NCBI RefSeq assembly: GCF_023499215.1
Contig: NZ_JAKHSK010000013.1
Coordinates: 1-64,000 of the forward strand
Reading direction: 5' to 3'
DNA: 64,000 nucleotides
Origin: Zunongwangia pacifica
GTDB lineage: Bacteria > Bacteroidota > Bacteroidia > Flavobacteriales > Flavobacteriaceae
Of the stretch, positions 571 through 61,976 are shown in pieces. Within the stretch, counting starts at the first letter, position 1. Each line of letters opens with the position of its first letter. Both the position numbers and the translations under genes were made by a program. The notes under the pieces are model-generated. The model was not told the DNA's origin. It saw nothing but the letters and a program-made list of their open reading frames with translations, and ran no database searches.

Positions 571-637
571 CGTCATTCTGAACTTGTTTCAGAATCTCAT
601 AAGAGTGATGAGATCCCGGATCAAGTCCGGGATGACG
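571..637. repeat. REP-like double hairpin, copy 1
   Basis: Outer arms CGTCAT/ATGACG enclose two hairpins, CTGAA...TTCAG and CCCGGA...TCCGGG. A close relative lies at 7562-7631, a half copy at 15620-15650, and a degenerate copy inside the MITE at 27167-27303. This resembles the widespread 'GTCATTCTGAACTTGTTTCAG' intergenic repeats of bacteria. Confidence 0.65.
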
Positions 638-678: not shown

Positions 679-713
679 TAAACTGCTTACTGCGACTGTT
701 TACTGCCTACTGG
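679..713 (-). repeat. 7-base-periodic tail after the oxidoreductase gene
   Basis: On the minus strand the bases after the stop codon read as degenerate heptads with CAGT recurring about every 7 bases (for example CCAGTAG, GCAGTAA, GCAGTAA). The same type of tail follows the genes ending at 2300, 3306 and 8980. Confidence 0.5.
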
Positions 714-714
714 A

Positions 715-2073
715 CTACGTCATTCCCTTAATATCGTTGCTCCAGGTAGGGTAGGCGAAAATCATTGCTTTTAGGTCTTGGCAGGAAAGACCGCCACACA
801 TTGCCATTACAAACATATTAATCATTTCGCCGGCATCTGGACCCACCAGGTGAGCGCCAAGAACTTTTTCGGTTTTTTTATCTTTAATCACTTTAAACGC
901 GTAGTGCTGATTGGCAATACGCTTGGAATTAAACCAACTGGGTACCGATTTGTGTTTTACCACATAATCAAAACCTCTTTCTTTCGCTTGCTGTTCTGAA
1001 AGTCCTACGGAAGCCACATTGGGCAGTGTAAACACTACCGAAGGTTGCGGCGGATAATGCGCTTCGGTTTTATTATATTTTCCTAAAAGGTTAGTGGAAA
1101 CCACCCGTGATTCTTGAGAAGAGAGCGGCGTAAGCGGTAAACCTTCACTATCTGAAACATCTCCGCATGCATAAACACTTGGGTTGGTAGTACTTTGCAG
1201 ATGCTCATTCACCGTAATTCCTTTATTGCTGAAGGCGACATTCCCTTTTTCCAATTCCAATTCGTCAATCGAAGGAACGCGACCGGCGGTATTAAAAACC
1301 AGTTCCGCTTTTGCTGAAACTTCTTTTCCATCTTTCGTTTCCGCAGTTACCCGAAGGTATTTTCTAAGCTTTTCTACTTTTGAAGCTTTCGCATTAAACA
1401 TAAATTTGATGCCAATAGCTTCGGAAGCTTCGGTAAGATGCGCGACCATATCTTCATCAAAATTGGAAAGTGGTCTCGGCTCCGTATCAATCACGGTAAC
1501 TTCTACGCCAAGTCGGGCGGCGATATGGGCAAATTCCATCCCAATGTAACCGGCTCCGATAAAAATCATCGATTCGGAGAGCTTTTCCAATTCCAGGAAA
1601 TCGTCGCTATCTAGCATTAATTCGGTTCCCGGAATTTTTAGTGGCATTGTTTTATTTCCCGTGGCGATCACGATTTTCTTGGCCTTTACAGTTTTACCCT
1701 CTACCGAAAGCGTGTTTTCATCTAAAAATTTAGGTGATTGGTGATACATTTTGATATCGAGAGCCGCCAAATCTTTTTCGGTCGCTGCGGGAATAGCGCC
1801 GGTAAATTTGTATTTGAATTTCTGTAAATCTTCCCAGCTTACTTCCGGCATTTTAGAAATTCCCAATCCCAGCATATTTTGGGAACGCTCGATAATTTCG
1901 GTAATTCCTACCAAAACTTTTTTGGGGTCGCAACCGCGATTGGGGCAGGTGCCGCCGTACTCCCGATTATCGGCAATGGCGACTTTCCATCCCGCTTCAG
2001 CACAATCTTTGGCTACACCTTTCCCGGCAGTTCCGGTACCGATTACAAAAACATCAAATTCTTCTATTCCCAT
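715..2073 (-). CDS. FAD/NAD(P)-dependent disulfide oxidoreductase (class I)
   Basis: Cytoplasmic flavoprotein of the glutathione reductase / mercuric reductase / lipoamide dehydrogenase family; 452 residues is the normal family length. In order I see the FAD-binding GTGTAGKG (12-19), the redox pair Cys43/Cys48 in GGTCPNRGC, the NAD(P)-binding GAGYIGMEF near 175, the ACGD FAD motif near 305 and the dimerisation domain. The C-terminal His-Glu base pair of glutathione reductase is replaced by AYPTWSND, a trait shared by a large subfamily of unassigned substrate, so I do not name one. ATG start. A ~190-base spacer repeat separates it from the SDR gene upstream, and the 3' side carries a heptad-periodic tail instead of a hairpin terminator. 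Confidence 0.9.
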   Translation of the reverse strand: MGIEEFDVFVIGTGTAGKGVAKDCAEAGWKVAIADNREYGGTCPNRGCDPKKVLVGITEIIERSQNMLGLGISKMPEVSWEDLQKFKYKFTGAIPAATEKDLAALDIKMYHQSPKFLDENTLSVEGKTVKAKKIVIATGNKTMPLKIPGTELMLDSDDFLELEKLSESMIFIGAGYIGMEFAHIAARLGVEVTVIDTEPRPLSNFDEDMVAHLTEASEAIGIKFMFNAKASKVEKLRKYLRVTAETKDGKEVSAKAELVFNTAGRVPSIDELELEKGNVAFSNKGITVNEHLQSTTNPSVYACGDVSDSEGLPLTPLSSQESRVVSTNLLGKYNKTEAHYPPQPSVVFTLPNVASVGLSEQQAKERGFDYVVKHKSVPSWFNSKRIANQHYAFKVIKDKKTEKVLGAHLVGPDAGEMINMFVMAMCGGLSCQDLKAMIFAYPTWSNDIKGMT

Positions 2074-2096
2074 TTTTTTTATTTTAGATATTATAT

Positions 2097-2299
2097 CGCT
2101 GCGCTGTTAGAATTTAGACAATTTGATAATGTGCTAATTTGAAAATGAATGAAATCTTTATTTTCAAATTTAGAGACAGTCAACTGCCGTTTTAAACATT
2201 GTCTTGATTCCTGATTCTTATTTCCTGTTTCGAGATATTCTATGGTCTATTTTCTCTTATCTCACGTCTCATTACTCAATTATAACTACTCGCTACTAT
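2097..2299 (-). repeat. ~190-base spacer repeat, copy a
   Basis: First of three related spacers (a 2097-2299, b 3114-3305, c 3810-3985). All share GCTGCGCTGTTAGAAT, AATGTGCTA..TTGAAAATGAA, CAAATTTAGA.ACAGTCAACTGC, AAACATTGTCTTG and TTCCTGATTCTTA in the same order. On the minus strand the part next to the upstream gene's stop codon is 7-base periodic. Confidence 0.8.
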
Positions 2300-3079
2300 T
2301 TAAATATACTTCACTACTCCGCCATCAACCCGTAAACTTGCTCCATTGGTAGCCGAGGAAAGTGGACTCGCAACATAAGCAATCATATTGGCGACTTCCT
2401 GCGGATCGGCAAATCGCTGGATTAACGAACTGGGGCGCTGAGTTTCAAAAAACTCATTTTCTATTTCCTTTTTGTCATTATTGTCGGCATCTACCATATC
2501 TTTTACACCTTCAGAATAGGTGGGGCCCGGTAATACGCTGTTTACGGTAACATTGGTACCTTTGGTGATTTCGGCAATTCCTCTTGAAATAGAAAGTTGT
2601 GCGGTTTTCGTCATTCCGTAATGAATCATTTCTACCGGAATATTCAACCCGCTTTCACTTGAAATGAAAATCACCCGTCCCCAATCCTGATCGAGCATTT
2701 TAGGCAGTAAAGCTTTGGTAAGCCGAACGCCGCTGAGCACATTTACTTCATAGAAATCTTTCCATTCTTCATCTGGAATTTCAAAAAAGTCTTTCGGATT
2801 AAAAATGCCGACATTATTGATAAGAATATCGACTTTACCAATTTTTTCGATTAGGAGATCGACCTCATCTTTTTTCGAAAAATCGCAGGCAATTCCAGAG
2901 ATTTTAGTGTTTTTGATTTCGCTGTTTATACTTAAAATGGCTTTGTCTATGCTTTCTTGCGATCGCCCGTTAATAATCACTTCGGCACCTTCTTTTGCCA
3001 GGGTTTTCGCTGTGGCATAACCAATCCCTTTGGTTGATCCTGAAATAAATACTTTTTTGTCTTTTAACTGATAATCCAT
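2300..3079 (-). CDS. SDR family NAD(P)-dependent oxidoreductase
   Basis: Classical short-chain dehydrogenase/reductase of 259 residues with a Rossmann fold. The cofactor motif GSTKGIG is at 14-20 and NNVG (the NNAG variant) at 88-91. The catalytic residues are Ser141, Tyr154 and Lys158 (YGMTK), followed by the PG motif after the sixth strand and a C-terminal NGASLRVDGG, usual for SDRs. The substrate cannot be read from the sequence. It sits in a three-gene minus-strand group with a flavin oxidoreductase and DoxX, suggestive of redox or detoxification work, but ~190-base repeats separate the genes, so a single operon is not assured. ATG start at 3079. Confidence 0.9.
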   Translation of the reverse strand: MDYQLKDKKVFISGSTKGIGYATAKTLAKEGAEVIINGRSQESIDKAILSINSEIKNTKISGIACDFSKKDEVDLLIEKIGKVDILINNVGIFNPKDFFEIPDEEWKDFYEVNVLSGVRLTKALLPKMLDQDWGRVIFISSESGLNIPVEMIHYGMTKTAQLSISRGIAEITKGTNVTVNSVLPGPTYSEGVKDMVDADNNDKKEIENEFFETQRPSSLIQRFADPQEVANMIAYVASPLSSATNGASLRVDGGVVKYI

Positions 3080-3113
3080 TTTGTCTTTTTTTAATTTAGG
3101 AATTAGATGTTAG

Positions 3114-3305
3114 ACCGCTGCGCTGTTAGAATATAGATGATTTGATAATGTGCTAATTTGAAAATGAACGAAATGCTTACTTTTTATTTCCAAATTTAGA
3201 AACAGTCAACTGCCGTTTTAAACATTGTCTTGGTTCCTGATTCTTACTTCCTGTTTCAATATTCTCTTGTCTCTTATCTCACGTCTCATTACTCAATTCT
3301 AATTA
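3114..3305 (-). repeat. ~190-base spacer repeat, copy b
   Basis: Second copy of the spacer family, lying exactly between the SDR start and the DoxX stop. Read on the minus strand, the part next to the DoxX stop codon is a run of degenerate heptads ending in AGA or GGA (for example AATGAGA CGTGAGA, then TAAGAGA CAAGAGA). Confidence 0.8.
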
Positions 3306-3701
3306 CTATTCCTTACTCTTCTTCACGGCCCAAACTTCATATTCCAGGTTTTTTATGAGAAAAAAGATAAATAACGCGTAAAGCATTTGTGTTCCGATCG
3401 CGCTCCAATCTTCTTTAAAGGCACATCCGGTAATGAGCAGCATTATAAAAATAGCTGCGGCGGCTAGTGTTTTTTTACTGAAAATGCCTAAAAAGACGAA
3501 AATCCCCAGCACCACTTCGATAAAAGGAATGGCATAAGCCACCATTTCTATTAAGGGTAATGGCAGCATTGTACCTTCAAAGCCTTGTGTGAGTCCGTTA
3601 GTAAAGGCTTCCAGTTTGGGAATCCGAACAAATCCGTGCAGGAAAAAGTTGATTCCCAGTGTTATCCTGGCCAATAAAAAAGCGAGCTGGTGGTTGGACA
3701 T
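3306..3701 (-). CDS. DoxX family membrane protein
   Basis: 131-residue integral membrane protein with the DoxX pattern: LLLRIxLGxxFxxHG-like start (LLARITLGINFFLHGFVRIPKL), a second segment with PFIEVVLGIFVFLGI, and further hydrophobic segments (LAAAAIFIMLLITGCAF and the MLYALFIFFLIKNLEYEVW region), about four helices in all. DoxX proteins are small membrane subunits linked in some bacteria to quinone or thiol oxidation; the role here is not determined. Its flavin-oxidoreductase and SDR neighbours are compatible with a redox role, which is inference only. ATG start at 3701; flanked on both sides by spacer repeats. Confidence 0.85.
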   Translation of the reverse strand: MSNHQLAFLLARITLGINFFLHGFVRIPKLEAFTNGLTQGFEGTMLPLPLIEMVAYAIPFIEVVLGIFVFLGIFSKKTLAAAAIFIMLLITGCAFKEDWSAIGTQMLYALFIFFLIKNLEYEVWAVKKSKE

Positions 3702-3809
3702 TGCAATTTTTTTTGAAATTACATTCTTTGAGACGGAATCCCTGTTATGGAAATTGTAAAATATTCAAATAGCGGTAAGATGATTTGTTGTCCGGAATTA
3801 GAAGTTCGA

Positions 3810-3985
3810 CCGCTGCGCTGTTAGAATATAGATGATGTGTTAATGTGCTATTTGAAAATGAACGAAATACTTACTTTTTATTTCCAAATTTAGAAACAGT
3901 CAACTGCTGTTCTAAATATTGTCTTGATTCCTGATTCTTATTTCCTGTTTCAATATCTCTCCTCTATTTTCTATTGCTCCTTTTT
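3810..3985 (-). repeat. ~190-base spacer repeat, copy c
   Basis: Third copy, upstream of DoxX and before the mfd promoter. No gene stop codon borders its left side on the minus strand, so this copy may mark a lost gene or a duplicated boundary. The order of conserved blocks is the same as in copies a and b. The rest of 3702-4131 holds only the mfd promoter. Confidence 0.75.
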
Positions 3986-4095
3986 ATATTTATTTAAATT
4001 GGAATTCAAATCTTTCACTTTTCCATTCCAATAAGCTGAGCGCTAATTGCTGATAGCTTAGAGCTAATTCTATACGTTAAAAATATCATAGTCAG

Positions 4096-4126
4096 TTGTG
4101 AAGCTTTTCTTTTGCAATTATCTTTG
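4096..4126 (+). promoter_or_regulatory. mfd promoter, nearly leaderless
   Basis: TTG at 4096-4098, a 20-base spacer, then TATCTTTG at 4119-4126. This fits the Bacteroidetes consensus of TTG or TTTG, 17-23 bases, then TAnnTTTG. Only five bases (CAGCA) separate the -7 element from the ATG, so the transcript should begin at or almost at the start codon. Confidence 0.7.
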
Positions 4127-4131
4127 CAGCA

Positions 4132-7100
4132 ATGAGTACATCTACCATCGCCCAAAGTTTTGCACAATCCCCGCAACAGCAGGAATTGCGGGACGCTATT
4201 GCCGTTTCTGAAAAAAATACCGATAAAATTCATCTAAAAGGCCTTGTAGGCTCGTCACTTTCGTTTGTGGTGGCCAACGCGTTTAAAGAAGCCAAGCGTC
4301 CTTTTTTAATGATTTTAAACGATAAAGAAGAAGCCGCCTATTACCTAAACGATCTAGAACAATTAATTGGTGAAGACGATGTGTTGTTCTATCCCGGCAG
4401 TTACCGCAGGCCCTATCAAATTGAAGAAACCGACAACGCGAATGTTCTGTTGCGTGCCGAGGTATTAAACCGAATCAACTCACGCAAGAAACCGGCGGTG
4501 ATTGTGACTTATCCCGATGCGCTGTTCGAAAAAGTGGTAACCCGAAAAGAACTCGATAAAAGCACGCTGAAGATTCACGTAAACGACGAACTTTCCATCG
4601 ATTTTGTCAATGAAGTTTTGTTTGAATACAAATTCAAACGTGTAGATTTTGTTACCGAACCGGGAGAGTTTTCAGTACGCGGTGGGATTATTGATGTATT
4701 CTCTTTCAGTAATGATGAGCCCTACCGGATCGAATTTTTTGGGGATGAAGTGGATAGCATTCGGAGTTTCGATGTAGAGACGCAACTTTCTACCGATAAG
4801 GTGAAGAAAATCTCCATAATGCCGAATGTCGAGAACAAAAAACTCGATGAGGTTCGGGAGAGTTTCTTAAAATATGTCGCCGCAAATACATTGATATTCG
4901 TTAAAAATATCGACCTTTTTTCAGCACAACTCGATAAACTTTTTGAGAAAGCCGAAGAAGCTTTTCAAAAGATTTCAGGAGAAATCAAGCAAAGTGAGCC
5001 CGCTGCCCTTTTTTGTAATTCAGCATTAATCAATAAGCAATTAGTGGAATTTTCGGTGGCCGAATTGAGCAATCAGGCCTTTTTAAAACCGAAAAAAGAG
5101 ATTGTTTATTTTGTGACTCCGCAACCCTCCTTCAATAAACAATTCGATTTATTGATTGAAAATCTTATTGAAAATCAGGAAAAAGGCTATACCAATTATA
5201 TTTTCTGCGGGAGCGAGCAGCAGGCGAAGCGCTTTCACGATATTTTCGACGATCAGGAAAAGAAAGTAAAATACCAAACGGTGGTACTTTCCTTGTTTCA
5301 GGGATTTATTGACGAACAGGCGAAAAATGTTTGCTATACCGATCATCAGATTTTTGAACGTTACCATAAATTCAGCTTAAAAAATGGCTATGCCAAAAAG
5401 CAGGCGATAACGCTGAAAGAGCTCACCAATCTTACCGTAGGCGATTATGTTACCCATATTGATCACGGCATAGGGAAGTTTGGCGGACTTCAAAAAATTG
5501 ATGTAGAAGGCAAGAAACAGGAAGCCATTAAACTGATTTATGGCGAGCGCGATATCCTGTATTTAAGCATTCATTCCCTACATAAAATTTCAAAATACAA
5601 CGGTAAAGACGGGAAAGAACCTAAAATCTTCAAGTTAGGTAGCAATGCCTGGAAAAACCTGAAGAAAAAGACCAAAGCCCGCGTTAAACATATCGCCTAT
5701 AATTTAATTGAATTATACGCCAAACGCCGCTTGCAGAAAGGTTTTGCTTACGGTCCCGATTCGTATTTGCAACACGAGCTGGAAGCGTCGTTTATTTATG
5801 AAGATACGCCCGATCAAAGTACTGCGACTGAAGCGGTGAAAAAAGATATGGAAAACGAGCGCCCAATGGACCGATTGGTTTGTGGGGATGTTGGTTTTGG
5901 AAAGACCGAAGTTGCCATTCGCGCCGCCTTTAAAGCCGTAGATAATGGGAAACAGGTAGCGGTGTTGGTGCCCACGACGATTTTGGCCTTTCAGCACCAT
6001 CAAACATTTTCTGAGCGTTTAAAAGATTTGCCGGTAACGGTGGATTATTTAAACAGATTTAGAACCGCCAAAGAGCGCCGCGAAACGTTGGCCGATCTGG
6101 AAAGCGGTCGCGTAGATATTATTATCGGAACGCATCAGTTAGTCAACAAGTCCGTTAAATTTAAAGATTTGGGGCTGCTGATTGTTGATGAAGAGCAAAA
6201 GTTTGGTGTTGCGGTAAAAGATAAGTTGAAAACCATCAAAGAAAACGTTGATACGCTAACGTTAACGGCAACGCCAATTCCGCGTACGCTTCAGTTTAGT
6301 TTAATGGCAGCGCGGGATTTATCGACCATTACCACGCCTCCGCCTAACCGTTATCCGATTGAGTCGAACGTGATCCGTTTTTCCGAAGAAACCATTCGGG
6401 ATGCAGTGTTGTATGAAATTCAGCGTGGTGGACAGGTATTTTTTATTCATAACCGAATCGAAAATATCAAGGAAGTTGCCGGAATGATTCAGCGCTTGGT
6501 TCCCGATGCGAAAGTAGGCATTGGTCACGGACAAATGGAAGGGAAGAAGCTGGAGAAGTTGATGTTGAGTTTTATCAACGGGGAATTCGACGTGCTGGTT
6601 TCGACCACCATTATCGAAAGCGGATTGGATGTCACCAACGCGAACACCATTTTTATTAATAATGCCAATAACTTCGGACTTTCAGATCTGCACCAAATGC
6701 GGGGTCGGGTAGGGCGAAGCAACAAAAAAGCTTTCTGTTATTTTATCACGCCGCCTTATTCTGCGATGACCGAAGAAGCGCGTAAACGAATGACGGCTTT
6801 AGAGCAATTTTCAGACCTGGGAAGCGGCTTCAACATTGCGATGAAAGATTTGGAAATCCGGGGTGCCGGAGATTTACTAGGTGGTGAGCAAAGCGGATTT
6901 ATCAACGAAATTGGTTTTGATACCTATCAGAAAATTTTATCGGAAGCTATTGAGGAACTGAAAGAAAACGAATTTAAAGAACTGTATAACGAAGAAGATA
7001 TTGAATATAAAGATTTTGTAAAAGAAACGCAAATCGACACCGATTTTGAGATTCTGTTCCCAGACGATTATATCAACAATATCGCGGAACGACTGAATTT

Positions 7101-7512
7101 ATACACCAAGCTGAATGAACTAAAAACCGAAGAAGAATTAGAGAAATTTGAAGCCGAATTGGTGGATCGTTTTGGTGAATTACCGGTACCGGCAGTAGAT
7201 TTGCTGAACAGTGTGAGAATCAAATGGATCGCTTCAAAAATCGGACTCGAAAAAATTATAATGAAACAAAATAAACTGATTGGATATTTTATTTCAGATC
7301 AGCAATCACGATTCTATCAAACAGCCAATTTCACCAAAGTCCTGCAATACGTGCAATCCCACCCGCAGGCCTGCAAAATGAAAGAAAAGAAAACCCGAAA
7401 CGGTTTACGTTTACTATTGACGTTTGAAAAAATCAATTCAATTGAAAAAGCTTTAAAAGTATTGCAGCCTTTAGATTTTAGAAAGAAAAAGGAGGAAGTG
7501 GAAGAAGCTTAG
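4132..7512 (+). CDS. mfd: Transcription-repair coupling factor Mfd
   Basis: 1126-residue ATP-dependent DNA translocase that removes RNA polymerase stalled at lesions and recruits UvrA. It shows the UvrB-like N-terminal region with GSYRRPYQ and GEFSVRGGIIDVF. Next comes the CarD-like RNA-polymerase interaction domain (about 430-530, VGDYVTHIDHGIGKFGG). Helicase motifs follow: Walker A GDVGFGKTE near 585-593, DEEQ near 686-689, TATPIPRTL, and motif VI with QMRGRVGRS. The C-terminal TRCF domain contains LYTKLNELKTEEEL. Length is normal. Motif II is DEEQ rather than the DEEH of E. coli, which I treat as a lineage variant. A consensus promoter stops five bases before the ATG. Confidence 0.97.
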   Translation: MSTSTIAQSFAQSPQQQELRDAIAVSEKNTDKIHLKGLVGSSLSFVVANAFKEAKRPFLMILNDKEEAAYYLNDLEQLIGEDDVLFYPGSYRRPYQIEETDNANVLLRAEVLNRINSRKKPAVIVTYPDALFEKVVTRKELDKSTLKIHVNDELSIDFVNEVLFEYKFKRVDFVTEPGEFSVRGGIIDVFSFSNDEPYRIEFFGDEVDSIRSFDVETQLSTDKVKKISIMPNVENKKLDEVRESFLKYVAANTLIFVKNIDLFSAQLDKLFEKAEEAFQKISGEIKQSEPAALFCNSALINKQLVEFSVAELSNQAFLKPKKEIVYFVTPQPSFNKQFDLLIENLIENQEKGYTNYIFCGSEQQAKRFHDIFDDQEKKVKYQTVVLSLFQGFIDEQAKNVCYTDHQIFERYHKFSLKNGYAKKQAITLKELTNLTVGDYVTHIDHGIGKFGGLQKIDVEGKKQEAIKLIYGERDILYLSIHSLHKISKYNGKDGKEPKIFKLGSNAWKNLKKKTKARVKHIAYNLIELYAKRRLQKGFAYGPDSYLQHELEASFIYEDTPDQSTATEAVKKDMENERPMDRLVCGDVGFGKTEVAIRAAFKAVDNGKQVAVLVPTTILAFQHHQTFSERLKDLPVTVDYLNRFRTAKERRETLADLESGRVDIIIGTHQLVNKSVKFKDLGLLIVDEEQKFGVAVKDKLKTIKENVDTLTLTATPIPRTLQFSLMAARDLSTITTPPPNRYPIESNVIRFSEETIRDAVLYEIQRGGQVFFIHNRIENIKEVAGMIQRLVPDAKVGIGHGQMEGKKLEKLMLSFINGEFDVLVSTTIIESGLDVTNANTIFINNANNFGLSDLHQMRGRVGRSNKKAFCYFITPPYSAMTEEARKRMTALEQFSDLGSGFNIAMKDLEIRGAGDLLGGEQSGFINEIGFDTYQKILSEAIEELKENEFKELYNEEDIEYKDFVKETQIDTDFEILFPDDYINNIAERLNLYTKLNELKTEEELEKFEAELVDRFGELPVPAVDLLNSVRIKWIASKIGLEKIIMKQNKLIGYFISDQQSRFYQTANFTKVLQYVQSHPQACKMKEKKTRNGLRLLLTFEKINSIEKALKVLQPLDFRKKKEEVEEA

Positions 7513-7561
7513 ATTTTTATAGTATTCGCTTTTTGTCAACTTAATCTTTTCACTTTAAAAA

Positions 7562-7631
7562 TGTCATGCTGAACTTGATTCAGCATCTCATGCTGCTTAG
7601 GATGAGCCCCTGAATCAAGTTCAGGGTGACG
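7562..7631. repeat. REP-like double hairpin, copy 2
   Basis: Two hairpins, GCTGAAC..GATTCAGC and CCCTGAA..TTCAGGG, between outer TGTCA and GTGAC ends, just downstream of mfd and convergent with the next gene. It may serve as a transcription barrier, but no U-run follows. Confidence 0.6.
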
Positions 7632-7694
7632 AAAATTCACATATTATGATATAGCGGATATACAATGTGCTTAAGATTAATAACATCTAAACCA

Positions 7695-8495
7695 TCATAT
7701 CTCATATTTAAACTCAAACCCAATTTTATCCAAGTTTACCGAAGAAATTATTTTTCCTTTTGAAGGTCGATTTTGGTCATATTCGGGGGCTTTTATATTT
7801 CTGGATTTTGCTTCTTTGGTATAGTATTCATGTTTTTTAGGATGCTCGGGATAAGCGGCATTAAAAACAGTTCCGAATTCATCATTTTCGATGATTTTGG
7901 ACAATAATTCAATACAATCTTCACGCTGAATTAAATTTGCCGGTGCATCGGCATTTTTGAGTCCGCTTTTATTAGAAAGCATCGTTACCGGATGCCGATC
8001 TTTACTAATTAAGCCGCCAAACCTTATCACGGTAGTTTCAAAGTTGGGGTTATCGCCTAATATATTTTCACAGGCAATTAGTTGCTTTGCAGCTTGTGAA
8101 TTTCCATTCGGTTTATTTTCTTCAGTATATTCAGGAAAATTTTCCTCATCTTCAAAAACACTTGTTGAGCTTACAAAGATCACTTTTTGGATGCCCGATT
8201 TTTCAATGTAAGAAATGATATTGGTGATTTTTCCGGTAAAATCTGTTTCTGGATTTTTTCGTAATCCCGGCGGAATGTCGATAATCAGAATTTCAGAATT
8301 CGACAAAAAGGAACTCATATCACCCTGAATCCCGTTATCGTAAAGTTCGAGATGATAAGGGGTGATGCCTGCTGAAGAAAGTTCTTGCATTTTAGCAACC
8401 GTGGTGGTGGATCCTTTAATGGCATAACCATCTTCCATTAGTTTTTTTGCCAACGGAAAACCTAACCAACCACATCCTAATATTGAAATTTGCAT
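7695..8495 (-). CDS. YeeZ-like NAD(P)-binding epimerase/dehydratase-family protein
   Basis: Rossmann-fold protein of 266 residues from the chosen ATG at 8495. An in-frame upstream extension of 18 lysine-rich residues is rejected because the fold begins at MQISILGCGWLGFP. GCGWLG (7-12) is the dinucleotide-binding glycine motif, and the protein resembles E. coli YeeZ and other atypical extended SDRs. VSSTSVF is present in mid-protein, but the YxxxK catalytic motif is not obvious, as is usual in this subgroup. Substrate unknown. It converges with mfd and is preceded by a long non-coding region. Confidence 0.8.
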   Translation of the reverse strand: MQISILGCGWLGFPLAKKLMEDGYAIKGSTTTVAKMQELSSAGITPYHLELYDNGIQGDMSSFLSNSEILIIDIPPGLRKNPETDFTGKITNIISYIEKSGIQKVIFVSSTSVFEDEENFPEYTEENKPNGNSQAAKQLIACENILGDNPNFETTVIRFGGLISKDRHPVTMLSNKSGLKNADAPANLIQREDCIELLSKIIENDEFGTVFNAAYPEHPKKHEYYTKEAKSRNIKAPEYDQNRPSKGKIISSVNLDKIGFEFKYEI

Positions 8496-8979
8496 ATTTT
8501 TTTTAGATTTTGTTTGTTTTTTCTTTTTCCATTGCTGAAAAAGAAACAAAAAAGCTAGGCTTACAAAAATTGTCTGAAATTTATCGTTCGAATCCTAAAT
8601 TTCAGGAACTCGACTACGTCTCAGACAGCCTGAAATTATTACGGATTTTTCACTTCAAATTTTTACACCAATTTTTGATAGGCCATTTTTTCAATTGGAT
8701 ATCTCTATTTGATGTACCAATTGAAATTGAAAATTTTATGCTTCTTGTTTGTATACCCAATCTTCAAACTGGCCTATTTTTAAAATTATTTTTCTCTTTT
8801 TTAATTTGTATGGCTACATCTATAGATCTTTTGCGATAGCTATTGGAACTATCAAGATACCGGTTTTATCAAATTCACCATTCAACATTTTTAATTCAAT
8901 TTATCCTGTCTCCTGTCTCCTGTCTCTTGTCTCCTGTTTGAGACTGCTTACTGAATCTGGCAACTGCGACTGCTCCCTG
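8496..8979. other. Non-coding region with a foldback and a heptad-repeat tail
   Basis: Short open frames here are AT-rich, Phe/Leu/Ile-rich shadows without motifs. A foldback lies at 8571-8627: outer arms TGTCTGA and TCAGACA, inner arms CTGAAATTTA (8574-8583) and TAAATTTCAG (8596-8605). Bases 8903-8978 form the 7-base-periodic tail of the M28 peptidase gene. I see nothing definite in 8628-8902. Confidence 0.6.
8903..8978 (-). repeat. 7-base-periodic tail after the M28 peptidase gene
   Basis: On the minus strand, starting within ten bases of the stop codon, the sequence falls into heptads. The clearest block is GACAAGA GACAGGA followed by GACAGGA GACAGGA. The block nearer the stop is more degenerate, with CAG as the repeated core. 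No hairpin terminator is seen for this gene. Confidence 0.65.
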
Positions 8980-11295
8980 TTATTGGTTCAACTTAATTCG
9001 TTTTTTATAAATCACCGCATCGTTTAACACAAATGGTTTTGGGATCATGGCTTCAGAACGTTTTGGTACATTAAGCTGCTCGTTTTCCAAAAGATCGTAG
9101 CTGGATTCATATAAAATGAATTCGGCCGACTTGTTCTTATCTAAACTAAAATTCATTCGCAGTGTATCTTTGCTGGAAATGTAATAGCTTAGCAAACGAT
9201 TTTTCCATCTGCGCGTAAACATATTAAAGGATTCCTGCCCAAGTTTTACGTTTTCGGGTTGTAGTTCGTTGACTTCAAATTCGCTAAAATCGGTAATATT
9301 TTCAGTATAAATTTCTAATCGTTTGGCATCTCTATTTGGTGCGATTTTTAACGAATATTGAAATTCGTTATTAGTGCTATCAATTTTTTGAAGAATGATA
9401 GCAGGTTTTTCAATATCGATTTTTGGAGCGTCACTTCTCCAGGTAAAGCCAGAATGATATTTACTGCTGAATTTTGTTTCGGCATTCGTTAGCGTTACCG
9501 GTTCTTTTCCAAAATATTTTGAGGTCCATTCATCGGGCATGGTATCATAAGAATACCAGTTGGCTTTGTCTTCATCGGCATCATACAAATACACCAAACT
9601 GTTGGGTTTGGGTCTTTCCGCAGTAAATTCTGATGTAAAATGAGCATAAAACATAAAGGCATTAAAGCCTAAAAACAATAATACTGCGAGTAGGTCTTTT
9701 TTGCTGAAATAGCCAAAAACCGGTAAAAAAAGGCTAAACAATAAAATACTAAGAATGCCCGCAACAAATAACATTTTTAATCCTAGTGCCACCGGAAACA
9801 TTGGGATAAAGGGAAACAAAATGAATACAGCGGGTAAACTTAAAATGGTATTTATAATTAAGTTCGGTTTTTTCTGGTGGATCATTAACAGCAACTGCAT
9901 ACATCCAAAATACGCCGGAATTATAAAATAAGACGCGCCTTTTAAACCAACAGCCAGTAGCGCGCAAATTAGTATCCAGAAAAATAAGGGCGCAACAAAT
10001 TGGGAAGCCGTATCTTCTTCAGTATAAAACTTATGATATACAAAAAAAGCAACGGTTAAACTTAGCAATACTGCCGCGGTGATGTAGCTGTAGCCGTTAT
10101 ACGTAAAGCCTTGCAACATTTCTGAATATTCAGGATAAATGTAAAGGCAAAATTTCCAAAGTCCAAATACCAAAAGTCCCCCAATAATCAGACTTAAAAA
10201 ATAAGGGATGAAACCTTTGAAAATGGATTTTACTTGAAGTTTCTTTTTGAAAATACCGTATCCTACTATTCCTAAAAATAAAATAAATGCCAAGATATTC
10301 ATAGGCGTAATCCAGGCAAACGGATAAGTAATAAATTGACCAAAGGGGAGATTGAAATATAAAAGATCGCTATCTGAATGTAACTGATTGAGATCTGCAT
10401 CCTGAAAATAATGGAGTAGGGGCATGAGGTAATCTCCCTGATGGGCTAAGGTTTCTAAATCCAGATTTTTAGGAACGTCATTCGCGGTATGATAATCGAA
10501 ATGATCATCAATAAACGCAAAATTAAATCCGTTAATGTTTCCAAATTCCCTTAGAACGGTAAGATCTGTATCGTTTGGTAAAAGTTTATAAACACTGTAT
10601 GCTAAAGAATTTGTGGTAGGGAAAGGAACCTGGGCTTCTTTAAAAGCTTTTATAAGTTTGGTGTTTCCGGCATTGGTTTCTAATAGCATAAAAGAACTAC
10701 CACCGCTGCCACGGGCTTCGAAATTTAGGGCAAGTTTTACATCTTTTGCCCAGGGATGTTCTTTCACAAATAAGTCGGCCCCCATTAACCCAATTTCTTC
10801 AGCATCGGTAAATAAAATGATAATGTCGTTTTTAGGTGTATTCCCTTCAGCGATAAAAGCACGTACACCTTCCAGAATGGTAGCAACTCCGCTTCCTGCA
10901 TCACTTGCACCATGAGAAGAATGTGGCTGGCTATCGTAATGCGTCATTAAAACCAGCGCATCACCGTCACCGCTTCCTTTAATTCGGGTTAAGATATTTT
11001 GTGGCCGGCTAAGTAGAGCCTCGTCGTTTAACACAAAATTTTCCTGCGTTTGTACTTCTAAACCTAGATTTTGCAGGTCGTTAACGATATAATTTCTTAC
11101 CGTACTATGTGCTGCACTCCCCAGGTAATGTGCAGCTTCTCCTATTTTTTCTACATGCTGAAAAGCTTTGCTAACAGAGAATTCATTTTCAGGAACCTCT
11201 TCAGGAATTTCTGAAGGTTTAAGGCTATGATAACTTAACCAGCAACTAAAGCTTATAAGTAGTAAAGCAATTAAAGCTTGGAGATTTTTAGACAT
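8980..11295 (-). CDS. M28-family zinc metallopeptidase with multi-helix membrane domain
   Basis: 771 residues. An N-terminal hydrophobic anchor (about 6-22) precedes an M28 aminopeptidase-like domain with metal-ligand motifs: MTHYDS (His119), GASDAGSG (Asp132), TDAEEIG (Glu166/Glu167), and a late FDYHTANDVPKNLD His. About nine hydrophobic segments follow between residues 325 and 560, then a C-terminal extracytoplasmic domain. This layout matches the large membrane M28 proteins (FXNA/Ermp1-like) common in Bacteroidetes. The expected role is trimming N-terminal residues from peptides outside the inner membrane; the substrate is unknown. ATG start at 11295. Confidence 0.9.
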   Translation of the reverse strand: MSKNLQALIALLLISFSCWLSYHSLKPSEIPEEVPENEFSVSKAFQHVEKIGEAAHYLGSAAHSTVRNYIVNDLQNLGLEVQTQENFVLNDEALLSRPQNILTRIKGSGDGDALVLMTHYDSQPHSSHGASDAGSGVATILEGVRAFIAEGNTPKNDIIILFTDAEEIGLMGADLFVKEHPWAKDVKLALNFEARGSGGSSFMLLETNAGNTKLIKAFKEAQVPFPTTNSLAYSVYKLLPNDTDLTVLREFGNINGFNFAFIDDHFDYHTANDVPKNLDLETLAHQGDYLMPLLHYFQDADLNQLHSDSDLLYFNLPFGQFITYPFAWITPMNILAFILFLGIVGYGIFKKKLQVKSIFKGFIPYFLSLIIGGLLVFGLWKFCLYIYPEYSEMLQGFTYNGYSYITAAVLLSLTVAFFVYHKFYTEEDTASQFVAPLFFWILICALLAVGLKGASYFIIPAYFGCMQLLLMIHQKKPNLIINTILSLPAVFILFPFIPMFPVALGLKMLFVAGILSILLFSLFLPVFGYFSKKDLLAVLLFLGFNAFMFYAHFTSEFTAERPKPNSLVYLYDADEDKANWYSYDTMPDEWTSKYFGKEPVTLTNAETKFSSKYHSGFTWRSDAPKIDIEKPAIILQKIDSTNNEFQYSLKIAPNRDAKRLEIYTENITDFSEFEVNELQPENVKLGQESFNMFTRRWKNRLLSYYISSKDTLRMNFSLDKNKSAEFILYESSYDLLENEQLNVPKRSEAMIPKPFVLNDAVIYKKRIKLNQ

Positions 11296-61888: not shown

Positions 61889-61976
61889 AGAGAGGTGGCC
61901 GAGTGGTCGAAGGCGCACGCCTGGAAAGTGTGTATACGCCAAAAGCGTATCGAGGGTTCGAATCCCTTCCTCTCTG
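61889..61976 (+). tRNA. tRNA-Ser (GGA)
   Basis: 88-base class II tRNA. Acceptor stem AGAGAGG/CCTCTCT with discriminator G; anticodon stem CACGC/GTGTG round the loop CTGGAAA, so the anticodon is GGA. A long variable arm follows, then GGTTCGAATCCC of the T arm. CCA is not encoded. It reads serine UCC/UCU codons. No other tRNA is adjacent. Confidence 0.96.

What the first reader, a model, noticed from the sequence alone, without database searches (positions are those of the whole stretch)
679..8978. Degenerate heptanucleotide-periodic sequence directly after stop codons of four minus-strand genes
Seen: on the minus strand, the bases following the stops at 715, 2300, 3306 and 8980 fall into 7-base units (CAGTAxG-like after 715; AGA- or GGA-ending units after 2300 and 3306; GACAGGA-like after 8980). 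Seven is out of phase with codons, so this is not decayed coding sequence. I found no hairpin terminator for these four genes, whereas other genes here (ssb, aspS, S9 and M13 peptidases) have good hairpins and no heptads. Inference: the heptads may be an alternative 3' end, an RNA stability element or a protein-binding array. They could instead be a neutral expanding microsatellite.
Basis: partly seen in the sequence, partly recalled or inferred. Interest (0 to 1): 0.62.

Follow-up and report, generated by a model that had tools for sequence, protein, structure and literature searches.

The report
Seven-base repeat arms of intergenic elements
The seven-base repeats after these genes are real and look like the arms of small DNA elements that lodge between operon genes of marine flavobacteria; elsewhere, arms of the same style flank genes for a small four-helix protein otherwise known from elements inside ribosomal RNA.

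Summary
Period 7 is the most enriched period in spacers of the 864 kb sampled from this genome (a Zunongwangia). The arrays are not specific to gene 3' ends: those beside stops are G-rich on the sense strand, those beside starts mostly C-rich. The window carries three homologous copies of a roughly 200-nt spacer element, two inside an operon whose junctions are 10-18 nt in two relatives of other genera.

The best reading is a family of modular intergenic elements with inverted heptad arms and exchangeable interiors: nothing, a non-coding module, a palindrome, or a ~120-aa four-helix-bundle gene (PF05635/TIGR02436), a family known from 23S rRNA intervening sequences (IVS). Such genes are flanked by such arms far more often than control genes, in Flavobacteriaceae and on mainly cyanobacterial plasmids. 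The published Coxiella 23S IVS has heptamers beside this gene too.

RNase III-type processing is inferred. The window copies carry no four-helix gene and the two full ones do not fold better than shuffles; most sampled arrays are far from any four-helix gene. Heptamer repeats are known; my searches listed no paper linking intergenic ones to this gene family.

The parts
2074..2299 (-). Full element copy filling the SDR > FAD-oxidoreductase spacer (226 nt)
   Evidence: Matches copy 3079-3306 at 84% over 2084-2289; relatives Mesonia algae L068 and Christiangramia L063 have 18 and 15 nt between last aligned codon and next start
2202..2297 (-). Left arm: degenerate G-rich heptads directly after the stop of the SDR gene
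   Evidence: Lag-7 run score 19 over 96 nt
2118..2147 (-). Octad-like module (TTTTCAAATTAGCACATTATCAAAT type)
   Evidence: Read from the sequence; segments ~139-172 and ~166-218 of the query spacer recur across the genome. Period 8 did not reach the threshold in this copy
2082..2119 (-). Right arm: C-rich heptad-like TCTAA units before the FAD-oxidoreductase start
   Evidence: Read from the sequence; similarity of 2074-2120 to flanks downstream of four-helix genes not significant (p 0.16)
3080..3305 (-). Full element copy filling the DoxX > SDR spacer (226 nt)
   Evidence: Query; four other Zunongwangia genomes have spacers of 79-244 nt here; 10 and 11 nt in L068 and L063
3228..3308 (-). Left arm heptads overlapping the DoxX stop
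   Evidence: Lag-7 score 16 or 18
3092..3138 (-). Right arm: C-rich heptad-like units before the SDR start
   Evidence: Sequence; 3085-3140 is more similar to flanks downstream of four-helix genes than to control flanks (p 5.7e-3)
3794..3972 (-). Third, partial element copy in the divergent mfd/DoxX spacer
   Evidence: 91% identity to copy 3079-3306 over query 28-208; lag-7 run 3922-3951, score 11
8904..8937 (-). Nearly perfect heptads (GACAGGA) downstream of stop 8980
   Evidence: Lag-7 score 23; TRF period 7, 4.9 copies, 92% matches
682..712 (-). Weak heptad-like CAGTAxG units after stop 715 (one unit is 6 nt)
   Evidence: Lag-7 score 7 only; TRF period 13

Best explanation
The heptads are the arms of small modular elements that lie between genes, most tellingly at operon junctions. 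Each element runs from the stop codon of one gene to near the start codon of the next, with a G-rich heptad (sometimes octad) array at the stop side and, where complete, an inverse C-rich array at the start side. The interior is exchangeable: nothing, a non-coding module, a palindrome, or a ~120-aa four-helix-bundle gene of the S23p/Avd superfamily (PF05635, TIGR02436). SHOWN HERE: position, composition rule, presence and absence at orthologous junctions, strong association of four-helix genes with such arms in Flavobacteriaceae and in a 16-locus plasmid set, and on average better pairing of an element's own arms than of arms from different elements. INFERRED: they behave as mRNA counterparts of 23S rRNA intervening sequences. 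The arms pair in the polycistronic RNA, RNase III or a similar nuclease cuts there, and the element is tolerated because cutting between cistrons costs little. Slippage renews the units; recombination or template switching keeps the two arms matched. The window copies are read as gene-less, partly decayed members. How elements move is unknown.
For: (1) Three homologous copies in the window and 27 matches in the genome, the query included; matches in all 6 Zunongwangia genomes searched, own included. (2) Compact junctions in two relatives: 10-18 nt in L063 and L068 at both junctions. Across genera sdhA-sdhB is 3-18 nt in 14 of 28 parsed loci and fadB-fadA 3-24 nt in 8 of 30, with heptad spacers or four-helix elements in others. 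(3) Filled versus empty within a genus: sdhA-sdhB of the own genome holds a four-helix gene (L344); Z. mangrovi and Z. atlantica share an identical 75-nt heptad hairpin. (4) Four-helix genes, 56 of 58 loci analysed, against 268 control ORFs: array score >=10 upstream 39/56 vs 3/268; downstream 23/56 vs 11/268; both sides >=8 27/56 vs 2/268. (5) Own arms match better than cross pairs: alignment score 15.8 vs 10.1; duplex -29.1 vs -20.0 kcal/mol, plasmids -49.0 vs -30.7. (6) Plasmid four-helix genes (16 of 26 records fetched: 14 cyanobacterial, Azospirillum, Gemmatirosa): array >=10 on at least one side 15/16 vs 8/99 control ORFs of four of the cyanobacterial plasmids, both sides 9/16 vs 1/99; with controls of 80-170 aa only, 4/47 and 1/47. 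(7) Strand rule: stop-adjacent arrays G>C in 10/10, start-adjacent C>G in 5/7 (no-array spacers: first 40 nt G>C 242/623; last 40 nt G<C 344/623). On plasmids, arrays upstream of the four-helix gene G>C 10/13, downstream C>G 11/11. (8) All 14 non-filled named sdhAB spacers (13 distinct) fold with negative z, 11 of 14 below -2. (9) Published Coxiella 23S IVS: RNase III excision, inverted ends, tandem heptamers upstream of this ORF (PMC4990558).
Against: The two full window copies do not fold better than shuffles (z 0.42 and 1.74) and none of the own genome's 7 PF05635 matches lies on the window's contig, so their assignment rests on position, homology and modest similarity of units (p 5e-4 to 2e-2 for left arms; right arms p 0.16 and 5.7e-3). 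Most arrays sampled have no four-helix gene within 200 nt: lag-7 arrays near one are 3 of 24 (own), 0/16 (G004), 0/15 (G005), 3/36 (named loci); lag-8 4/12, 0/7, 0/2, 1/14. In the same samples the four-helix genes with an array are 4/4, 0/1, none present, and 3/3. Array-bearing spacers overall are only slightly better folded than others: z < -2 in 18/38 vs 77/240. Own arms beat all cross pairs in only 3 of 19 sdhAB and 4 of 8 fadBA spacers (1.0 expected each). On plasmids L280 has no array, L279 and L289 have arms of one direction, L294 has one C-rich array upstream. In Nostoc PCC 7120 published repeats are seldom paired, more often on the opposite strand, and absent from its plasmids (PMC4692102). 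Four-helix loci are not independent: many are orthologous sites. No RNA data; target-site duplications not examined.
Confidence: 0.58

Rival explanations
1. Ordinary long simple-sequence repeats. Polymerase slippage favours 7-nt units (the proposal of Mrazek 2007 as reported in later papers), and the arrays persist only where indels are tolerated, i.e. between genes. No element and no function.
For: Heptamers are reported as the commonest long repeat class in most genomes then examined (PMC4679880 section 3; PMC4692102 passages). Units differ between species at one orthologous site. Intergenic excess of period 7. Most sampled arrays lie far from a four-helix gene.
Against: Does not explain homologous ordered ~200-nt copies, the inverted arm pairs, the strand rule, or the bracketing of four-helix genes in several phyla.
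Confidence: 0.22
2. Intercistronic RNA hairpins selected by the host as terminators, attenuators or stability elements. The heptads merely fill the stems.
For: Of 14 non-filled named sdhA-sdhB spacers, 11 fold with z < -2. G-rich 5' arm and C-rich 3' arm. No other terminator called at 2300 and 3306.
Against: Half of the parsed loci (14 of 28) have 3-18 nt at the same junction. The two full window copies are unstructured. Hairpins lie inside operons such as sdhAB, where full termination would be costly (inference).
Confidence: 0.12
3. DNA-level binding array or recombination substrate (for example, repeats that drive gene rearrangement, as suggested for Gramella heptamers by MacGregor 2015).
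For: Z. atlantica lacks the SDR gene here and has a single spacer where five other Zunongwangia genomes have two. MacGregor notes a possible role in rearrangement.
Against: Unit sequence is not conserved between species, which argues against one sequence-specific protein. SDR absence is also seen in L062 with a short spacer.
Confidence: 0.08

Closest known systems
23S rRNA intervening sequences (IVS) with the S23p/PF05635 ORF, e.g. Coxiella (PMC4990558)
   Same: ORF of the four-helix S23p family, complementary ends, 428 nt (8 filled fadB-fadA elements here 416-526 nt), tandem heptamers beside the ORF
   Different: The present elements lie between protein-coding genes, not in rRNA; excision is not shown; the window copies have no ORF of this family
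Heptameric GGGAATC repeats of Xanthomonas and GGGGA(C/T)T of Nostoc (Rehm 2015, PMC4692102)
   Same: Heptads, intergenic; abstract: G-rich strand sense near stops and antisense before ORFs; paired convergent repeats at 70 sites in Xcc
   Different: Other units; few inverted pairs in Nostoc; that paper ties them to G-quadruplexes, and its text holds no S23, four-helix or intervening
TAACTGA and other heptamer arrays in Beggiatoaceae, Gramella forsetii, Aequorivita, Elizabethkingia (MacGregor 2015, PMC4679880)
   Same: Partly the same family of bacteria; arrays present in one species and absent in a relative at the same junction; near-identical array-bearing spacers in Elizabethkingia
   Different: That work proposes translational or rearrangement roles; its text holds no S23, four-helix or intervening
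Diversity-generating retroelement protein Avd
   Same: Homologous four-helix protein (NF033474 hit, below its cut-off, in 5 of 8 proteins)
   Different: No template/variable repeat searched for; reverse transcriptase found in 32 of 120 genomes against 88 of 120 for PF05635

Membership tests
Heptanucleotide simple-sequence repeats of bacterial spacers | Period 7 enriched over other periods in intergenic DNA | tested here: met
   24 intergenic runs vs 3.4 expected; 13 vs 0.2 at the higher threshold
Heptanucleotide simple-sequence repeats of bacterial spacers | Copy number varies between strains | not tested
   No set of strains of one species was fetched
23S rRNA intervening sequence (IVS) | Located inside a 23S rRNA gene | tested here: not met
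   Window copies lie between FAD-oxidoreductase, SDR, DoxX and mfd ORFs; the only Rfam match in the window is a tRNA at 61889-61976. Hence not filed as an IVS, only as IVS-like
23S rRNA intervening sequence (IVS) | Complementary ends forming a stem | tested here: inconclusive
   Not in the two full window copies (z 0.42, 1.74); z < -2 in 11 of 14 named sdhAB spacers
23S rRNA intervening sequence (IVS) | Excision by RNase III | not testable with these tools
   Needs RNA
23S rRNA intervening sequence (IVS) | Optional S23p/PF05635 ORF | tested here: inconclusive
   No PF05635 match on the window's contig; present in filled elements, incl. own genome C17:5465-5782; 8 of 8 tested proteins hit TIGR02436
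Intrinsic terminators | GC-rich stem followed by T tract | tested here: not met
   None called on the minus strand in 2074-2300, 3080-3306 or 8840-8980
Mobile element with transposase (MITE or IS type) | Target-site duplication and terminal inverted repeats | not tested
   Target-site duplications were not examined
Diversity-generating retroelement | Reverse transcriptase together with the Avd-like gene | tested here: inconclusive
   One RVT_1 match in the own genome (C69). By my count from the listings PF05635 is in 26 of 32 genomes with RVT_1 and 62 of 88 without: no clear tie

The most novel reading that the evidence does not exclude
The long-noted heptanucleotide repeats of bacterial spacers (flavobacteria, cyanobacteria, perhaps Xanthomonas) are not microsatellites in their own right but the arms of one widespread family of IVS-type elements that settle between cistrons, are cut out of or cut within mRNA, and in their complete form carry an Avd/S23p four-helix protein. 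Gene-less copies, such as those in this window, are the majority.
Probability: 0.42. Interest if true: 0.82.

Novelty: new variant of a known kind. Interest (0 to 1): 0.62.

Why it matters
Heptamer repeats have long been noted in bacterial spacers without an accepted cause, and the four-helix 'S23p' proteins, though common, are described as having no known function (PMC4990558, passage). Tying the two together gives both a context: an element with inverted heptad arms, with or without the gene, sitting at operon junctions. It makes specific tests possible (RNase III cleavage between cistrons, effect of the element on operon balance, role of the four-helix protein in spread) in ordinary environmental bacteria, and would connect rRNA intervening sequences, Avd proteins and intergenic repeats.

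Tried and rejected
Rejected: decayed coding sequence (period 7; 7 of 31 runs >=12 lie in coding DNA and none of the 13 at >=16). Gene-3'-end-only element (arrays also at starts). A described Rfam RNA (only a tRNA reached the threshold in the window). Reverse transcriptase as a requirement (RVT_1 in 32 of 120 genomes, PF05635 in 88 of 120, no clear tie by my count). Phage carriage of the four-helix gene (no match to one query in the phage collection). A stable RNA fold in the two full window copies. A general folding excess of array-bearing spacers was only slight.

Led nowhere: PNAS 2007 paper on simple repeats not held; PMC4060949 has no heptamer passage; a search for cyanobacterial STRR papers (20 of 200 listed) gave no direct account by its listing; PMC5524665 and PMC8700078, opened for four-helix terms, list such genes but do not link them to repeats in the passages shown.

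Parsing faults to know: the automatic 'filled' count for sdhB (5 of 28) includes two other membrane-like ORFs (L330, L340) and one misparsed sdhB (L339, whose true spacer is short); genuine four-helix fillings are L337 and L344, and L348 holds a shortened one counted as empty. L331 and L345 were dropped there. In one search, 2 of 58 loci (L226, L260) were dropped for in-frame stops and 4 of 272 control ORFs were removed as four-helix genes. The control duplex mean used 150 of the 268 controls, the unit comparison used 100 of them. Searches use slightly different ORF callers (hence 11 vs 12 lag-8 and 35 vs 36 named lag-7 runs).
Full report
WHAT IS IN THE WINDOW. The window is the start of contig C5 of a 5.1-Mb, 100-contig genome. 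Lag-7 runs after the stops at 2300, 3306 and 8980 score 19, 16 and 23; the best score at any other lag after any of 49 stops is 11; stop 715 scores 7. In 864 kb of this genome, period 7 is the chief period enriched in spacers (24 runs >=12 against 3.4 in Markov controls, 13 against 0.2 at >=16), period 8 second, others not clearly. Eighty named loci around mfd, of flavobacterial relatives, show the same (lag-7 runs >=16: 20 intergenic, 3 coding, 1.4 in controls).

A DISPERSED ELEMENT. The spacer 3079-3306 has a second full copy at 2084-2289 (84%) and a partial one at 3794-3972 (91%), and 27 matches in the genome at E <= 1e-3, itself included, most of them to its second half. All 6 Zunongwangia genomes, own included, have matches, and 12 of 199 genomes drawn from the family have matches, all but those of the genus short; only 4 candidates per genome were scored there. 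In five of the six genomes there are two operon spacers of 79 to 384 nt, mostly bounded by similar heptads at the stop and TCTAA-type units before the start, with different interiors; Z. atlantica has a single spacer of 236 nt and no SDR gene there (modules judged by eye). In L063 (Christiangramia) and L068 (Mesonia algae) the same operon has 10-18 nt between the last aligned codon and the next start.

GEOMETRY. Of lag-7 arrays lying only within 20 nt of a stop, 10 of 10 are G>C on the sense strand; of those only within 20 nt of a start, 5 of 7 are C>G, 1 G>C, 1 even. Spacers without arrays give G>C in 242 of 623 for the first 40 nt; for the last 40 nt G>C 207 and G<C 344 of 623. The sdhA-sdhB spacer of 15 loci shows the pairing best: 13 spacers of 59-82 nt look like inverted pairs of heptads, or of octads in L054, L063 and L064; L098 has other units, and L053 is filled (by eye). 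Of the 14 not filled, all have negative fold z, 11 below -2 (-0.40 to -4.67); L050 and L056 are identical, so 13 are distinct. The two full window copies do not fold (0.42 and 1.74), and over 867 tandem spacers arrays make little difference (z < -2 in 18 of 38 against 77 of a sample of 240).

THE FOUR-HELIX GENE. In L053 an ORF lies between the two arms. PF05635 has 5-7 matches in each of 6 Zunongwangia genomes and at least one at E <= 1e-10 in 88 of 120 genomes of the family, none in 14 control genomes. Of 58 loci, 56 were analysed against 268 control ORFs of 90-170 aa from Zunongwangia samples: upstream array score >=10 in 39 vs 3, downstream 23 vs 11, both >=8 in 27 vs 2. Arms of one locus match each other better than arms of different loci (15.8 vs 10.1; own better than all 20 cross pairs in 23 of 56, 2.7 expected). 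Duplex energies agree (-29.1 vs -20.0; 150 of the control genes -20.2; own best of 31 in 15 of 56). These loci are not independent: many are the same junction in different genera, fadB-fadA above all, and the 28 Zunongwangia loci are roughly ten sites (by eye). The nearest solved structure is XCC0516 of Xanthomonas, 2gsc (E 3e-16).

FILLED, EMPTY, ABSENT. fadB-fadA in 30 loci (30 of 55 matching genomes had loci fetched): 8 filled (416-526 nt, 7 with arrays >=9), 8 of 3-24 nt, 14 of 42-135 nt of which 8 have arrays. sdhA-sdhB in 28 of 30 loci: 14 of 3-18 nt, two four-helix fillings (L337 and the own genome, L344) plus a shortened one (L348), heptad spacers (L325, L326, L327, L349), and others (corrected as told under Tried and rejected). 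So one junction can be bare, carry arms, or carry arms and gene.

OTHER PHYLA. The plasmid collection has 26 records with a relative of one Zunongwangia protein, 24 of them cyanobacterial; phages have none. I fetched 16 of the 26. Fifteen of 16 have an array score >=10 on at least one side and 9 of 16 on both, against 8 and 1 of 99 ORFs of 80-400 aa from four of the cyanobacterial plasmids (Fisher p 3e-12 and 1.5e-8). A further four-helix gene met inside those control stretches scores 26 on both sides. Upstream arrays are G>C in 10 of 13, downstream ones C>G in 11 of 11. Azospirillum shows heptads on both sides and Gemmatirosa a period-8 array on one; neither has controls of its own. Exceptions: L280 has none, L279 and L289 have arms of one direction, L294 is C-rich upstream. 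Three sit between cas genes.

LITERATURE. PMC4990558 (abstract, passages, section 19) reports the Coxiella IVS as excised by RNase III, with terminal inverted repeats, the S23p ORF, and tandem heptamers just upstream of it. PMC4679880 (abstract, sections 3 and 12, passages) reports heptamer arrays in Gramella forsetii and others. [quoted passage not shown] PMC10053308 (passages) notes the Avd resemblance of PF05635. Neither heptamer paper contains S23, four-helix or intervening. Searches listed no paper whose title or abstract start joins intergenic heptamers to this gene family; several lists were capped (for example 15 of 200 and 15 of 1,310), and the library is open-licence only.

HOW IT MAY WORK. 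Shown: arms, positions, association, matched pairs on average. Inferred: pairing in RNA and cutting between cistrons as in rRNA IVS; renewal of units by slippage; matching of arms by template switching. Not shown: any movement, any function of the protein, any effect on expression. For the window itself the claim is weaker than for the family: its copies hold no four-helix gene, the full ones are not folded, and most sampled arrays are far from a four-helix gene (3 of 24 near one in the own sample).

VERDICT. A real feature, ordinary as a heptamer repeat, and newly placed in a context that is unusual and testable.

Noticed in passing
window 571-637 and 7562-7630: Palindromic GTCATCC...GGATGAC-type elements downstream of stops 715 and 7695; the region 570-717 folds with z -4.53. 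A similar palindrome sits inside the Z. atlantica heptad spacer (by eye).
   Followed up: partly
window about 8520-8630: A stretch (GGCTGTCTGAGACGTAG... TTTTTGTTTCTTTTTCAGCAATGGAAAAAG) resembles the interior of the SDR > FAD spacers of G004 and G002 (by eye): perhaps an exchangeable module.
   Followed up: no
window 4035-4065: Another lag-7 run (score 10) of different units, upstream of mfd.
   Followed up: no
L330 and L340, sdhA-sdhB junction: A ~118-aa membrane-like ORF, unlike the four-helix gene, lies in the same junction.
   Followed up: no
L279, L281, L291: Four-helix genes with repeat arms sit between cas genes (cas6-cas4 twice, cas10-cmr3) on cyanobacterial plasmids.
   Followed up: no
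L054, L063, L064, L137, L244: Period-8 arrays (TTATCACA, TTTTCAAA types) take the place of heptads in some elements.
   Followed up: partly
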